Shown: piece after piece, positions 16,802 through 42,716 of the stretch
Layout of the letters: each line of letters opens with the position of its first letter
Position numbering within the stretch: the stretch's first letter is position 1
Assembly (NCBI GenBank): GCA_015488115.1
Contig: WFOK01000051.1
Span: 1 to 48,005 of the forward strand
DNA: 48,005 nucleotides
Reading direction: 5' to 3'
DNA from: Mariprofundaceae bacterium
GTDB taxonomy: Bacteria; Pseudomonadota; Zetaproteobacteria; Mariprofundales; Mariprofundaceae
The notes under the pieces: model-generated
Told to the model about the DNA's origin: nothing
The model's database searches: none
The model's input: only the letters and a program-made list of their open reading frames with translations
Made by a program: the position numbers and the translations under genes

Positions 16802-18544
16802 TCAGTAACTCTTGCGGAACTGGGTCGCATGACATTTCGGACATGGCGGAACGCGTCCAGTGCGCTTCAAGTGAATCTCATGACCACAGGAAGTGCAGGT
16901 CAACGTCCCTGCACTCGTGATCTCTCCCGAACGGCATGTACGCACCTGGTCGGCCTTCTCCGCCACATTCGCAAACAATTCGCCGGCAGCCCGAAACAGC
17001 GAGGCCAACGAGGCCACCGCACCGGCACCCAGCCGGGAGGGATGTAGTTTTTCCATGGCTTCCTCGCTGAAACTGGCAGCCATGTGACCGAAATCGCGCT
17101 CCAGGAAGGCCTTCAGCCGTTTTCCCTGCTCTTCGGAGAATGCACCGGCAGCCGTCAACTGTTCGCGCGCCTTTTCCATCGCTACCCTTGCAAATTCGGC
17201 AGTCTTCTCCGAGCCGGCCTCGAACAGCTCGGTGAAGCGTTCCACGAGCTGATCATACTGAATGGCCTCGACATCCTCCTCTGCCTCTTCTCCCATATGG
17301 GCGATGATGGCATCGCCAAACTGAGAGGTGGACAGCTTCGTCGCGCCTTCCATCAGGCGATGAAAGTCATACGTCACGGTCTTGGCCCGAATGGCGCCCG
17401 TGACACCCTGAATGATCAGATCCGCGGCCTCCGTCCAGCCCATGTAGCGAAGCATCATTTCGCCGGAAAGAATGACGGATGAGGGGTTGACGACATTCTT
17501 GTTCGCATATTTGGGAGCCGTGCCATGCGTGGCCTCGAAGATCGCATGACCGGTGTCATAATTGATGTTGGCGCCAGGAGCAATGCCGATGCCACCAACC
17601 TGAGCAGCCAGCGCATCGGACAGGTAATCGCCATTCAGGTTCAACGTGGCAATCACATCGAATTCCTTGGCGCGGGTCAGTACCTGCTGCAGAGCGATGT
17701 CGGCTATTGCATCCTTGATCACAAGTCCGTTGGGCAACTGACACCATGGACCGCCGTCGATCTCCTGGGCGCCAAACTCCCTCTTCGCAAGCTCATAACC
17801 CCAATTTCGGAAGGCACCCTCGGTGTACTTCATGATGTTACCCTTGTGCACCAGGGTCACGCTTTTCCGGTTGTTCTCGATCGCATAGCGAATGGCAGCG
17901 CGGACCAGACGTTCGGTACCCTCCCTTGAAACAGGCTTGATGCCGAAGCCGCTGGTCTCGGGAAACCGAATCTTGGTCACGCCCATTTCATTCCGCAGAA
18001 AATCCAGAAGCTTCCTGGCCTCATCGGAGCCTGCGGGCCATTCAATGCCGGCATAGATGTCCTCCGAGTTCTCGCGGAAGATGACCATGTCCACATCCTC
18101 AGGCCGCTTGACGGGGCTGGGCACGCCATCGAAATACTTAACCGGTCTCTGGCATACATACAGGTCCAGCTTCTGGCGCAACGCGACATTCAGCGAGCTG
18201 ATTCCTCCGCCAACAGGCGTGGTCAGCGGCCCCTTGATGCCAATGAGATATTCGGAAAACGCATCGAGGGTTTCCTGCGGCAGCCATGCCTCGTCCGTCT
18301 GACCATACATGTTCCATGCCTTTTCGCCGGCAAACACTTCCATCCAGGCGATCTTGCGCTGTCCTCCGTAAGCCTTCTCGACTGCGGCATCAAGCACGCG
18401 CTTGGCCGCGCGCCAGATGTCCGGGCCCGTTCCATCCCCTTCAATGAAGGCGATGATCGGCCTGTCCGGCACATGAAGCCGTCCATCCTCCCCCATGGTG
18501 ATCTTTTCCCCATCCTCGGGAATGCGAATCTTGTCGTATGCCAT
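16802..18544 (-). CDS. icd: NADP-type isocitrate dehydrogenase fused to a DUF1451-like zinc-ribbon domain
   Basis: 580 residues. Residues 1 to about 417 are a complete bacterial isocitrate dehydrogenase. They include [11 protein letters not shown], the phosphorylatable-serine loop [34 protein letters not shown], the [14 protein letters not shown] metal-ligand segment and the cofactor loop [11 protein letters not shown]. The family normally stops near residue 416. Here it runs without a break into about 160 more residues: a helical stretch, then [19 protein letters not shown] and CPKCHATQF (Cys550, Cys553, Cys568, Cys571). That is the layout of a whole stand-alone zinc-ribbon protein of the YbeL/DUF1451 type. 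Oxidative decarboxylation to 2-oxoglutarate is expected; the role of the extra domain is unknown. ATG 18544 has AAGGGG ten bases upstream. Confidence 0.93.
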
Positions 18545-21022: not shown

Positions 21023-22171
21023 TCAAATACCAAGCTCCCGCCGAACATGATGGATGACTCCGTCGGCCTTTTCGAGCTGCTCGGTCACCTGACAATAGAA
21101 ATGCGGGGACAGACGAATGGCGCCAGCCCTGTAGGCGCAAACAAGTCCTCTTGCCAGGGCCATGTTCACAAGCCGTGCATGCATACGCCCATCCGCCCCC
21201 CGGATACGGAAGCTGACGATCCCCGACAGGCGCCCTTCTGCATCCATCGAACACAATTCCCAATCCGCATGTGACTGGATCCAGGCGACAAGCTGTCTGG
21301 CCGCATGCAGAACCTTGTCCTCGACGAGATCCATACCCATCTCCTCGAACAGCGAAAGGCTTGCCTCCAAGGCATGGATACCGAGCATGTTCGGGCTCCC
21401 TGGCTCGAAGCGACGGGCCGTATGCGCCGGCTCCCAGTCCCGACGTTCAAAATCTCCGGCATGCTCGACCATATGCCAGCCGAACTGGCGCAGCCTCAAC
21501 CTGTTTCTCAGCGAAGGACGTACATACATCAATGCCAGGCCTTCCGGGCCCAGCAACCATTTGTGCCCGTCGGCCACGGCCACATCCGCCATGTTCTGCT
21601 GAACATCGAAGCGCAACATACCCAGATGCTGAATGGCATCGATGCAAAACAGCACGCCGCGTTCCCTGCAGGCCCTGCCTATGCGCGAAACATCCAGGCG
21701 CAAACCCGTCGCATATTGGACGGAACTGATACTGAGCAAGCGTGTGCGCTCGCAGATGGCGCCAAGAAGGGCCTCCTCTGGCTCATCGCACCCGAGCTCC
21801 ACGCTGTCAACGCACACGCCGTAGCAAGCCAGCGACTCCCAAACGATTCTGTTGGAGGGAAACTCGCCCCGGGCGATGACAATGCGGTCACCTGGTTGCC
21901 ATGTCAGTCCATAGGCAAGCAAAGAAAGGCCCTCGGAAGTGTTTTTTACCAACGCAATGTCATCAGCCGAACCGGCGCCCATCAGCCGGGCCGCGCGCAT
22001 GCGCAGCCTGGACTCCCGGCTGATCCAGGCTGGATAGTTCCTTGCCCCTTGCCGCATGCTCTCGTCGGCAAAGGCACAGACGGCATCCCTCGTCCGCCGG
22101 GGCCATGTCCCGATGGCCGCGTGATTCCAGTAGATCAGATTCGGATCAAGCGGAAACTCTTCCGGTATCAT
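21023..22171 (-). CDS. Class V PLP-dependent aminotransferase (cysteine desulfurase-like fold)
   Basis: 382 residues. Landmarks: [11 protein letters not shown] at the N-terminus, [28 protein letters not shown], and the PLP-lysine segment [12 protein letters not shown] with Lys204. [10 protein letters not shown] matches the substrate-binding EGTP-type loop. No conserved cysteine loop of NifS/SufS type is obvious in the C-terminal part, so desulfurase activity is doubtful. Related proteins are annotated only as aminotransferase class V. The ATG overlaps the hppA stop (ATGA, 22168-22171), so it is translationally coupled to the proton/sodium pyrophosphatase, an unexpected partner. Substrate unknown. 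Confidence 0.88.
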
Positions 22172-24168
22172 GCCAGCAGTGGAGCAATCACCAGGGAGAC
22201 GATGGCCATGACATTGATCAGAATGTTCATCGATGGTCCGGACGTATCCTTGAACGGGTCACCCACCGTGTCGCCAACAACGCAGGCCTTGTGCACATCC
22301 GAGCCCTTCCCGCCGAAATGGCCCTTTTCAACATGCTTCTTGGCATTATCCCAGGCCCCGCCCGCATTGGCCATGGTCAGGGCCAGCAGCACGCAGCCCA
22401 CGAGCGCGCCTCCTAGCATGCCGCCAAGCGATTCAGGCCCCAAACCGAAGCCCACAACCACGGGCGCGCTGACGGCAAGAACACCCGGCAACACCATGCG
22501 CTTGAGCGCCGCCGTCGTCGCAATGTCCACGCAACGCGCATGATCGGGCTCGGCCTTGCCTTCCATAAGCCCTGGAATCTCGTGAAATTGCCGTCGAATC
22601 TCCTTGATCATGTCAAAGGCCGCATCACCAACCGCGGTCATGGTCAGGGAAGCAACCAGAAAGGGAAACACACCTCCGACAAACATGCCGATGAGCACAC
22701 CGGGCTTGTTCAGCTCAAGCGAGAAGCCTGGCACATGGGCCGAGACGGTCTCCACATAGGCCGTGATGATGGCCAGGGCGGCCAGGGCAGCCGCGCCGAT
22801 GGCAAACCCCTTGCCGATGGCGGCCGTTGTGTTGCCCAGTTCATCAAGGGAGTCCGTAATGCGCCGGACCTTCTCGCCCATGCCGGCCATTTCAGCGATG
22901 CCACCAGCATTGTCGGCCACCGGCCCATAAGCATCAATGGCCATGGTCATGCCCACCGTGGCCAGCATGCCCACAGCAGCGATCCCAACCCCATAGAGGC
23001 CGCAAAGCGCGGTGGAAACATAGATGATGCCGCAAATGGTCAACAATGGCGCAACGACCGACCGCATGCCCACGGCAAGCCCCGCAATCATGACCGTCGC
23101 CGCCCCCGTCTCGCCTGCGGCCGCGATGTCCCTGACGGGCTTGCCTCCCGTATAGTATTCGGTGACCAGACCAATGATGATGCCACCCAGCGCGCCCGAA
23201 ACCACGGCACCCCAGATGTTGGGCGAAACTTCCGCCCAGTCGGTAACCATGAAGGCAAGAAAGATGAACAGCAATGATGAACCCACCGTACCGATGCGCA
23301 GGGCCAGTTGCGGATTGCGATCCGAGTATGCACGAACGAGCGCAATGCCAAGCAGGGAGCACAGAAGTCCCGCTGAGGCCAGGGCCAGCGGAAGAAACAT
23401 CAGCGCGGACCGGCTGCCCAACGGATCCAGCACATCGGCCGTCATGGCCGAGGCCATCGCGATGGTCGCAATGATGGCGCCACAGTAGGACTCGAAAATA
23501 TCCGAGCCCATGCCAGCCACATCGCCGACATTGTCGCCCACATTGTCCGCAATGACCCCGGGATTACGCGGATCATCCTCCGGAATGCCTGCCTCGACCT
23601 TGCCGACAAGATCCGCGCCAACGTCGGCGCTCTTGGTGTAAATGCCCCCCCCAACACGCGAAAACAGGGCCACAGAGGATGCGCCCATGCCGAAGCCGTG
23701 AATGGCATGGGCCGTTTCGGGATCGCCGCCGAACATCAGGTAAAGCGTTCCCAGGCCAAGCAGCCCCAAGGCGGCAACGGTCAGCCCCATGATCGATCCG
23801 CCGAAGAAAGCCACGGTCAGCGCCTCGGCCTGACCTCCGCGCTGCGCTGCCATCGCGGTGCGGACATTGGCCCGCGTTGCGGAAAACATGCCGAAATAGC
23901 CCGCCAGAGCCGAGGAAACCGAGCCCACGAGGAAAGCAAGCATGGTGTTCACACCCAGGCCGAGACCAAGCAGGATGGCCACCACAAGCACGAAGACGGC
24001 CAGAATCGAATACTCCCTGCGCAGAAACACCATGGCACCAAGATGAATGGCCTCGGCGATCTCCCTGACCTTGCCCTCTCCCGATGGATAACGCAAAACG
24101 ACGAAATAAAGGCCCAAGGCGGCCAACAGCCCCAATGCTCCCAGGCCAATGGGCACAAAGCTTTCCAT
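22168..24168 (-). CDS. hppA: Membrane-bound ion-translocating pyrophosphatase, predicted K+-dependent
   Basis: 666 residues with about 16 hydrophobic helices. It couples PPi hydrolysis to H+ or Na+ export across the inner membrane. Catalytic stretches are intact: [42 protein letters not shown], and near the C-terminus [20 protein letters not shown]. In GNTTAA the residue that is Lys in K+-independent enzymes is Ala, predicting K+ dependence. The Glu of DIFESY is where Na+-pumping members have theirs, but K+-dependent H+ pumps exist, so the ion is undecided. The ATG at 24168 follows GGGAGGGGAG; the 47-codon upstream extension has no family sequence. It lies 47 bp after the soluble pyrophosphatase. 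Confidence 0.96.
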
Positions 24169-24188
24169 ATCTCCCCTCCCAAAATGAA

Positions 24189-24210
24189 AGCGGGCGCCCG
24201 CGCGCCCGCT
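24189..24210 (-). terminator. GC-rich hairpin between ppa and hppA (attenuator-like)
   Basis: A perfect 9-bp stem (24189-24197 with 24202-24210) and a four-base loop start six bases after the ppa stop. On the coding strand it is followed by a T-rich TTTCATTTT. It could terminate part of the ppa transcripts before hppA, whose ribosome-binding site lies just beyond. Confidence 0.6.
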
Positions 24211-24215
24211 CCCGC

Positions 24216-24755
24216 TTAGTTGTTCTCCTTCTCCTGAAACCTGTTCACGGAGGAGATGATTTCCTCCTTGGCGGCATCGGCATCGCGCCACCCGAGCACC
24301 TTGACCCATTTTCCAGGCTCAAGATCCTTGTAATGATGGAAAAAATGCTGGATCTGATCGAGAAGGAACTTCGGCATGTCTTCCGGACCCTGCACATGGT
24401 CAAACACCGGCTTGATCTCCGACACGGGCACGGCCAGGACCTTGGCATCCAATCCCTTCTCGTCCTCCATGAGCAGCACCCCCACCGGCCTGCAGTTGAT
24501 CACGCAACCAGTGATCAACGAGAAGTTGCAGACAACAAGCGCATCGACCGGATCGCCATCCTCCGACAGCGTATTGGGCACAAAGCCATAATTCGCCGGG
24601 TAATGCATGGCCGTGTGCATGAACCTGTCGACGAAAAACGCACGCGATTCCTTGTCCAGCTCGTATTTGACCGGATCGGCATGAGCCGGCACTTCAATGA
24701 TGACATTGATATCCTCAGGCGGATTGTTGCCTGGTGGAATCTTGCTGATATCCAT
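24216..24755 (-). CDS. ppa: Soluble inorganic pyrophosphatase, family I
   Basis: 179 residues (E. coli 176). Hydrolyses PPi in the cytoplasm. The signature [12 protein letters not shown] supplies the metal-binding aspartates 66, 68 and 71. [19 protein letters not shown] and the downstream [14 protein letters not shown] segment are family landmarks. The ATG at 24755 follows AGGAGAG. It lies between amgK (53 bp upstream) and hppA, so the organism encodes dissipative and energy-conserving PPi hydrolysis side by side. Confidence 0.97.
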
Positions 24756-41315: not shown

Positions 41316-42716
41316 ATGGCCATCAATCTGCAACCCATCCAGCTTTCAGGAAAGGAAGTGCTGCCGCTCATCGAGGGAGGCAAGGGCGTTGCCGTTTCCA
41401 CGGGACAATGCTCCGGGGCCTGGGCTGCAGCCGGAGGCGTGGGCACGTTTTCCGCCGTCAATGCCGACCGCGTCGATGAGCACGGCAACGTGATCCGCAC
41501 GGTCTATCATGGGCGATCGCGCAAGGAACGTTTCAGGGAACTGGTCGAGCAGGCGATCCAGGGCGGCATCTGCCAGGCCAGGATCGCCCATGACGTTGCC
41601 GGAGGCGAGGGGCGCATCCATATGAATGTGCTGTGGGAAATGGGCGGCGCCGAGCAGGTGCTTGAAGGCGTCATGCAAGGCGCGAAGGGACTGATTCATG
41701 GCATCACCTGCGGCGCAGGCATGCCGTTCCGTCTAGCCCCGTTGGCCGCGAAATACAAAGTCCATTATTACCCCATCATTTCGTCCGCGCGGGCATTCCG
41801 CGCGCTGTGGCTGCGCTCCTATCGCAAGTTTCCCGAATGGTTGGGCGGGGTTGTTTATGAGGATCCCTGGCTTGCAGGCGGTCATAACGGATTGTCCAAC
41901 TCGGAGGATCCCGATCATCCTGAACCTCCCTATCCCCGAGTTGCGGCCCTTCGAAAAACCATGAACGAGTTCGGCCTGCAGCAGGTTCCCATCATCATGG
42001 CCGGGGGCGTCTGGTGGCTCAGTGAATGGACCGACTGGATGGACAACCCGGAAATCGGACCGATTGCCTTCCAGTTTGGCACGCGTCCGCTGCTGACTCG
42101 GGAAAGTCCGATTTCCGATGCATGGAAACAACGGCTGCTGAAGATCCGCAAGGGCGACGTGAAGCTTAACCGCTTCTCTCCGACGGGCTTCTATTCCTCC
42201 GCGGTCTACAACAGCTTTCTGCACGAGCTCTATGAGCGTTCGGACCGGGAGATGGCCTATGTGGATCACCCGGCCGGGGATCACAGCGAACCCTTCACCT
42301 TCGGGGTCCGCAACAAGACCGTCTATCTCACGCGGCGAGACAAGAAACGCGCCGAGACCTATATCGCGGAAGGCTTCACGAAGGCCCTGCCGACGCCGGA
42401 TTCCACGCTGGTCTTCGTCACCGAGGAGAAGGCAAGAGAAATCCGCCAGGATCAGCTCGACTGCATGGGCTGCCTTTCCCAGTGCCGGTTCTCAAACTGG
42501 GCGGCCAATGAGCTGGGCACAACCGGACGCAAGGCGGACCCGCGCAGTTTCTGCATCCAGAAAACCTTGCAGGAGATCGCCCATGGCGCGGACCCTGACG
42601 AGCACTTGATGTTTGCCGGACACGTGGCCTATCGCTTCGCGGAAGACCCCTTTTATGCCAACGGCTTCATCCCAACCGTCAGACAGCTTGTCGAACGGAT
42701 AGCGACCGGGGCATAA
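41316..42716 (+). CDS. Nitronate monooxygenase-like FMN protein with C-terminal cysteine cluster
   Basis: 466 residues. The TIM-barrel of the nitronate monooxygenase/2-nitropropane dioxygenase family is recognisable: STGQCSGAWAAAGGVGTF, GITCGAGMPF, AGGHNGLS and IIMAGGVW, the last two being FMN-phosphate and active-site regions. At 466 residues it is about 100 longer than typical members. The extra C-terminal part carries Cys383-x2-Cys386-x3-Cys390 and Cys413, an arrangement like the 4Fe-4S site of NADH:flavin oxidoreductases such as dienoyl-CoA reductase. No catalytic His typical of class I nitronate enzymes is evident, so nitronate may not be the substrate. Divergent from the RNA methyltransferase, with 115 bp between. 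Confidence 0.82.
   Translation: MAINLQPIQLSGKEVLPLIEGGKGVAVSTGQCSGAWAAAGGVGTFSAVNADRVDEHGNVIRTVYHGRSRKERFRELVEQAIQGGICQARIAHDVAGGEGRIHMNVLWEMGGAEQVLEGVMQGAKGLIHGITCGAGMPFRLAPLAAKYKVHYYPIISSARAFRALWLRSYRKFPEWLGGVVYEDPWLAGGHNGLSNSEDPDHPEPPYPRVAALRKTMNEFGLQQVPIIMAGGVWWLSEWTDWMDNPEIGPIAFQFGTRPLLTRESPISDAWKQRLLKIRKGDVKLNRFSPTGFYSSAVYNSFLHELYERSDREMAYVDHPAGDHSEPFTFGVRNKTVYLTRRDKKRAETYIAEGFTKALPTPDSTLVFVTEEKAREIRQDQLDCMGCLSQCRFSNWAANELGTTGRKADPRSFCIQKTLQEIAHGADPDEHLMFAGHVAYRFAEDPFYANGFIPTVRQLVERIATGA

What the first reader, a model, noticed from the sequence alone, without database searches (positions are those of the whole stretch)
41316..42716. Flavoprotein of the nitronate-monooxygenase family with an Fe-S-like C-terminal cysteine motif
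The extra C-terminal 100 residues carry Cys-x2-Cys-x3-Cys plus a fourth Cys 23 residues on. Known: a similar spacing binds 4Fe-4S in NADH:flavin oxidoreductase/dienoyl-CoA reductase enzymes. Standard nitronate monooxygenases have no cluster. This suggests a reductase-like or electron-bifurcating role rather than nitronate oxidation.
Basis: partly seen in the sequence, partly recalled or inferred. Interest (0 to 1): 0.5.

Follow-up and report, generated by a model that had tools for sequence, protein, structure and literature searches.

The report
Iron-sulfur enzyme for unsaturated fatty acids
A gene that databases would call a nitronate monooxygenase looks instead like the iron-sulfur flavoenzyme that puts the double bond into membrane fatty acids in iron-oxidising and many alphaproteobacterial bacteria that lack the textbook enzyme FabA.

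Summary
In detail: window 41316-42716 (+) encodes a 466-aa protein with C383-x2-C386-x3-C390-x22-C413. All four Cys are invariant in 68 of 68 aligned orthologs from Zeta- and Alphaproteobacteria. The dienoyl-CoA-reductase and bifurcation analogy is not. The closest solved structure, by sequence and by fold, is Helicobacter pylori FabX (FMN + [4Fe-4S] acyl-ACP dehydrogenase/isomerase; Z 39.6 against 31 for FabK). The catalytic His, FMN-contacting residues and all four cluster ligands align. Genomes behave as if this were the unsaturated-fatty-acid enzyme. Of 398 genomes of the phylum, 168 have this protein or a distant relative, 199 have FabA, none has both. In 190 of the class: 110, 64, none. 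FabB is missing too; FabI is present. In many alphas the gene sits directly after pnp, where other alphas carry fabI-fabB-fabA. Within one genus the two swap exactly, between conserved flanks. The clade is far from FabX/UfaA (about 25% identity), with different cysteine spacing and a 70-residue insert without a solved relative. Best reading: a divergent FabX-type enzyme, misnamed nitronate monooxygenase. No activity, cluster or electron acceptor has been measured.

The parts
41316..42716 (+). FabX-like Fe-S flavoprotein, whole gene (466 aa, ATG to stop)
41316..42230 (+). TIM-barrel FMN domain and the stretch up to the insert, about residues 1-305
   Evidence: AF2 model pLDDT 90.7, whole-length match to FabX
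41883..41885 (+). His190, equivalent of catalytic His182 of FabX; 68 of 68
42249..42458 (+). clade-specific insert, residues 312-381, predicted small alpha/beta subdomain, absent from the FabX-type and beta-type relatives; no PDB or Pfam match
42462..42485 (+). C383-x2-C386-x3-C390, three of four proposed [4Fe-4S] ligands
42552..42554 (+). C413, fourth proposed cluster ligand (FabX C320)
42612..42620 (+). F433-A434-G435, equivalent of the FMN-contacting F339-T340-G341 of FabX

Best explanation
The protein is a FabX-type acyl-ACP dehydrogenase/isomerase that makes unsaturated fatty acids. FMN in the TIM barrel and His190 take two electrons and a proton from a medium-chain saturated acyl-ACP (decanoyl-ACP in FabX) to give trans-2-enoyl-ACP, which isomerises to the cis-3 form and is elongated by FabF. 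The C-terminal four-Cys domain holds a [4Fe-4S] cluster that stores electrons from FMN and passes them on to an acceptor. It stands in for FabA+FabB in Zetaproteobacteria and many Alphaproteobacteria. Shown here: conservation, homology and fold, mutual exclusion with FabA, replacement at the same locus. Inferred: the reaction, the cluster, the substrate and the electron acceptor.
For: Fold and sequence: the best PDB match by phmmer, by profile and by fold is H. pylori FabX; VIA-align Z 39.6, rmsd 2.7, 353 residues aligned of 366, model 1-465 on FabX 1-363; FabK 31.1 and below. Profile-profile alignment to FabX-type relatives 99.6% and to beta-type relatives 99.8%, running through the cluster domain. 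Residues equivalent to FabX H182, N99, E175, Q240, T243, S273, F339, G341 and to the tunnel residues V305, I321, L325 (here L387, I414, L418) are invariant in 68 of 68 (equivalences read by me from the alignments). Genomics: 168 of 398 genomes with this protein or a distant relative, 199 of 398 with FabA, 0 with both; in 190 genomes of the class, 110, 64 and 0. FabB-level scores in 12 of 12 FabA genomes, 0 of 26 carriers, 0 of 3 genomes with distant relatives. FabI present in 41 of 41. No PF00487 desaturase at E 1e-10 in 13 of 16 zetas (own genome included), 12 of 23 alpha carriers and 16 of 16 further carriers. Locus: after pnp in 41 of 60 alpha loci, all same strand; 7 of 20 fabA loci hold pnp, convergent with fabA. 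Same-genus swap G250/G352 with homologous flanks and no remnant. Only NMO-family hit in its genome.
Against: No biochemical data. Identity to FabX is only about 18-26%, below the 50% that the FabX paper used for homologs. Cysteine spacing differs and there is a large insert. Model coordinates are not exposed, so Cys-Cys and Cys-FMN distances were not measured. Co-occurrence statistics are not corrected for relatedness. The gene is not in a fatty-acid operon in the window. 12 of 14 alpha genomes without FabA and without this protein also lack a desaturase hit, so at least one more route, or fatty-acid scavenging, may exist. Fatty acid profiles of zetaproteobacteria were not found in the papers searched.
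Confidence: 0.86

Rival explanations
1. It is an enoyl-ACP reductase of the FabK kind, the last step of saturated fatty acid synthesis, with a decorative metal site.
For: FabK is the next best fold (Z about 31); in fabA-type loci the swapped cassette also holds fabI.
Against: TIGR03151 (FabK) scores 21.4 bits against a cut-off of 453. All 26 carriers tested have FabI, G250 included. The exclusion is with FabA and FabB, not with FabI.
Confidence: 0.05
2. Same family and same pathway, but it works as an isomerase or as an accessory to a bifunctional FabZ, so that the dehydrogenation is not its job.
For: Own genome has a FabA-superfamily hit far below the cut-off (30.4 bits to TIGR01749, 149-aa frame, presumably FabZ); relatives that isomerise (FabN, FabQ) are named in PMC8626469.
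Against: Invariant catalytic His, FMN residues and cluster ligands argue for redox chemistry; such low-scoring hits occur in FabA genomes too (G031, G032, G034, G037, G038).
Confidence: 0.06
3. A true nitronate monooxygenase or an NADH:quinone-reductase-like NMO with a structural metal site.
For: PF03060 match over the gathering score; the plasmid-borne ortholog in Sphingomonas parapaucimobilis is annotated nitronate monooxygenase.
Against: Folds of solved NMOs score Z about 25-27 and PA1024 30, FabX 39.6. A nitronate detoxifier would not be expected to exclude FabA in two samples of 398 and 190 genomes (partly the same genomes) or to be kept in 0.6-1.4 Mb genomes.
Confidence: 0.02
4. A dienoyl-CoA-reductase-like or bifurcating reductase.
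For: C-x2-C-x3-C spacing as in FadH.
Against: No OYE-type domain found at E up to 1; no FadH-like match among the 50 best entries shown; no conserved partner gene recognised beside it other than the pnp operon and rubrerythrin.
Confidence: 0.01

Closest known systems
FabX of Helicobacter pylori (PDB 7e1q; PMC8626469)
   Same: NMO-family TIM barrel with FMN, C-terminal [4Fe-4S] domain, catalytic His, FMN-contacting residues, FabA-less genome with FabI
   Different: About 25% identity; cluster spacing x2/x3/x22 instead of x3/x3/x11; 70-residue insert 312-381; 11 more residues between third and fourth Cys; 466 instead of 363 aa
UfaA of Neisseria gonorrhoeae and its betaproteobacterial relatives (Isabella and Clark 2011, not held; known here from citations in PMC4549310 and PMC11300592, otherwise recalled)
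   Same: NMO-superfamily protein for unsaturated fatty acids in a bacterium without FabA; presumed relatives here (A3) have a homologous four-Cys domain
   Different: Spacing of the presumed relatives C-x5-C-x3-C-x12-C; about 26-31% identity; no insert. That A3 is the UfaA type is my inference (distant hits in Neisseria, Cupriavidus, Caballeronia and Variovorax records), not tested
FabK enoyl-ACP reductase
   Same: FMN TIM barrel, catalytic His
   Different: Has an NAD(P)H-binding motif where FabX has the cluster domain; reverse reaction; Z about 31
PfaD and trans-AT polyketide enoyl reductases
   Same: NMO fold acting on carrier-bound acyl chains (Z about 21-27)
   Different: 11-14% identity; part of PUFA/polyketide systems; no PfaD-type model among the NCBIfam matches at E up to 1
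FadH 2,4-dienoyl-CoA reductase
   Same: C-x2-C-x3-C-x11-C [4Fe-4S] plus FMN
   Different: Also FAD and NADPH, degradative reduction (PMC12691678, passages); different FMN-barrel family (recalled)

Membership tests
FabX/UfaA group of Fe-S NMO-family enzymes | Whole-length FabX fold including the cluster domain | tested here: met
   Z 39.6, 353 of 366 residues aligned, best of 50 entries shown; Foldseek E 2.5e-20
FabX/UfaA group of Fe-S NMO-family enzymes | Four Cys ligands in the C-terminal domain | tested here: met
   68 of 68; all four align with those of FabX-type relatives; spacing differs
FabX/UfaA group of Fe-S NMO-family enzymes | Catalytic His and FMN residues | tested here: met
   H190, N104, E182, Q253, T256, S288 68 of 68
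FabX/UfaA group of Fe-S NMO-family enzymes | Genomes lack FabA/FabB but have FabI | tested here: met
FabX/UfaA group of Fe-S NMO-family enzymes | Cluster present and four Cys close in space | not testable with these tools
   model coordinates are not exposed; no spectroscopy
FabX/UfaA group of Fe-S NMO-family enzymes | Acyl-ACP dehydrogenase/isomerase activity | not testable with these tools
   needs an enzyme assay
FabX in the narrow sense (over 50% identity, as in PMC8626469) | Identity over 50% to H. pylori FabX | tested here: not met
   18-26%
FabK | TIGR03151 over cut-off | tested here: not met
   21.4 of 453.1 bits
Nitronate monooxygenase (Pfam NMO superfamily) | PF03060 over gathering score | tested here: met
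   35.8 of 28 bits; a superfamily label, not a function
NADH:flavin oxidoreductase / dienoyl-CoA reductase | OYE-type FMN domain | tested here: not met
   PF03060 was the only Pfam family at E up to 1

The most novel reading that the evidence does not exclude
The clade is an O2-independent version of FabX. The cluster next to the clade-specific insert hands the electrons of acyl-ACP dehydrogenation to a protein or quinone acceptor docked on the insert, so double-bond formation is wired to the electron-transport chain. In Alphaproteobacteria this system and FabA-FabB have replaced each other repeatedly, in place, so that the class is split between two ways of making membrane lipids.
Probability: 0.3. 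Interest if true: 0.8.

Novelty: new variant of a known kind. Interest (0 to 1): 0.6.

Why it matters
It offers a testable answer to how Zetaproteobacteria and the large part of the Alphaproteobacteria without FabA make unsaturated membrane lipids, including genomes of 0.6-1.4 Mb that keep this gene. It shows that a gene liable to be labelled nitronate monooxygenase is probably a core lipid enzyme. It also extends the FabX chemistry, known from Helicobacter, to a second, deeply separated clade with its own cluster geometry. The in-place swap with fabA-fabB(-fabI) gives a ready-made genetic test.

Tried and rejected
Operon evidence in the window: the neighbours (ilvA, an RlmL-like methyltransferase, a Rep-type helicase, a PgmG-type mutase) are not fatty-acid genes; no promoter or terminator match. 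Rubrerythrin as a partner that removes peroxide: it lies in 20 of 60 loci with this gene but also in 11 of 20 fabA loci, so it marks the neighbourhood, not the function. Fold of the insert alone (pLDDT 83): best Foldseek E 1.0, no Pfam match, which does not show that the fold is new. Literature on zetaproteobacterial fatty acids, on FabA-less alphas and on essentiality in Sphingomonas, Zymomonas or Rickettsia gave nothing usable. Rejected: FabK, plain NMO, FadH-like and bifurcating readings (see rivals).

Full report
What is there. The ORF 41316-42716 (+) encodes 466 aa with C383-x2-C386-x3-C390-x22-C413. The window lies in a 1.69-Mb genome of 98.65% completeness; its nearest named relatives are Mariprofundaceae/Zetaproteobacteria records. 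PF03060 (NMO) is the only Pfam match at E up to 1, and this is the only NMO-family hit of the genome.

Conservation. Whole-protein searches found it in 34 of 41 relatives and 168 of 398 genomes of the phylum. The latter fall into 70 zetaproteobacterial hits, 40 other orthologs of 57-69% identity, and 58 distant ones at roughly 25-34%. In 68 aligned orthologs the four Cys are invariant, as are H190, N104, E182, Q253, T256, S288, G291, F292, L387, I414, L418, F433 and G435. The 19 distant relatives that I fetched (of 58) all carry a four-Cys motif in the same region but with other spacing: 11 with C-x3-C-x3-C-x9-C (FabX-like) and 8 with C-x5-C-x3-C-x12-C.

What it resembles. The best solved relative is H. 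pylori FabX by phmmer (E 7e-15), by profile (1e-26) and by fold (VIA-align Z 39.6, rmsd 2.7, 353 aligned; FabK about 31; NMOs about 25-27; PfaD 27). The model has mean pLDDT 90.7. In profile-profile alignments all four Cys align with those of the FabX-type relatives; with the beta-type relatives three of the four align and the first does not, its spacer being longer. FabX is an NMO-family FMN enzyme with a [4Fe-4S] cluster on C300, C304, C308 and C320. It dehydrogenates decanoyl-ACP and yields cis-3-decenoyl-ACP, with O2 as acceptor (PMC8626469; abstract, sections 4, 8, 10, 11 and passages of the discussion). F. nucleatum has a 50.8%-identical homolog (PMC11091888, passages). The gonococcal homolog NGO1024 (UfaA) works anaerobically with an unknown acceptor (as cited in PMC11300592, passages).

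A separate clade. The maximum-likelihood tree (46 of 87 selected rows) puts the window's clade on one side of a branch of length 4.74 with 100/100 support; zetas form one group of 8 rows with 100/100 inside the alphas' diversity. It has no outgroup, so rooting is not shown. The clade has an insert at 312-381 without a match in PDB or Pfam.

Genome logic. FabA (TIGR01749, all over the cut-off) occurs in 199 of 398 genomes; overlap with the 168 is 0; 31 have neither (Fisher p 2e-80, not corrected for relatedness). In 190 genomes of the class of G035 (some shared with the first sample): 110 with the protein, 64 with FabA (60 over the cut-off), overlap 0, neither 16; 83 and 50 family labels, none shared in that sample. 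In the phylum sample one family label (f17) holds both kinds in different genomes. FabB scores of 624 bits or more occur in 12 of 12 FabA genomes (11 over the cut-off of 630) and in 0 of 26 carriers, 0 of 3 genomes with distant relatives. FabI is in 41 of 41. Desaturase (PF00487, E 1e-10), 63 genomes: 3 of 16 zetas, 11 of 23 alpha carriers, 14 of 23 'neither' genomes that are not zetas, and the one FabA genome included. In a second set of 30: 0 of 16 carriers and 2 of 14 'neither' alphas. So many carriers, the window's genome among them, show no FabA, FabB-level protein or desaturase, but 12 of 14 'neither' alphas show nothing known either, which limits the argument from absence. Genomes of 0.6 Mb (88% complete) still keep the gene (G413, G530).

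Position. In 41 of 60 alpha loci pnp lies upstream on the same strand, in 40 within 1 kb (ORF to ORF), in the order infB-rbfA-truB-rpsO-pnp where the stretch reaches that far; of the other 19, some stretches are cut. Of 20 fabA loci, 19 have fabB and 19 fabI close by and 7 have pnp within the stretch, always convergent; four of the seven also have the rubrerythrin-like gene found beside this clade's gene. In one genus, G250 has the gene and G352 has fabA-fabB-fabI between homologous flanks (an RF-1 gene and a methyltransferase on one side, a 2-hydroxyacid dehydrogenase on the other), with no remnant (best tblastn E 0.26).

Mechanism and limits. Shown: conservation, homology, exclusion, replacement. 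Inferred: cluster, reaction, substrate, acceptor. Not done: distances in the model (coordinates are not exposed), any assay, a phylogenetically corrected test, fatty acid data for zetas.

Novelty. FabX and UfaA are known. I found no paper in the held library that assigns this alpha/zeta clade to unsaturated fatty acid synthesis (searches); the 2011 UfaA paper is not held and may discuss wider homologs. Hence 'new variant of a known kind'.

Noticed in passing
window 42249-42458: Clade-specific insert of about 70 residues, predicted small alpha/beta subdomain, with no PDB (best E 1.0) or Pfam match.
   Followed up: partly
class sample (G419, G425, G429, G449, G454, G459, G475, G477, G479, G489, G512, G536): 12 of 14 tested alphaproteobacterial genomes with neither FabA nor this protein also have no PF00487 desaturase hit: another route to unsaturated fatty acids, scavenging, or incomplete assemblies.
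   Followed up: no
L064, L085, L181 and others: A rubrerythrin-like gene sits beside the pnp-associated slot in both kinds of alpha genomes (20 of 60 and 11 of 20 loci).
   Followed up: partly
window 16802-18544 (-): A 580-aa ORF that reads like an isocitrate dehydrogenase (by eye) with a C-terminal Cys-x2-Cys ... Cys-x2-Cys tail that looks like a zinc ribbon; not searched.
   Followed up: no
window 22168-24755 (-): By eye, a membrane pyrophosphatase-like ORF directly beside a soluble inorganic pyrophosphatase-like ORF; not searched.
   Followed up: no
G157, G263: Two full-length copies of the protein in one assembly; G263 has 8% and G157 3% contamination, so mixed bins are likely.
   Followed up: no
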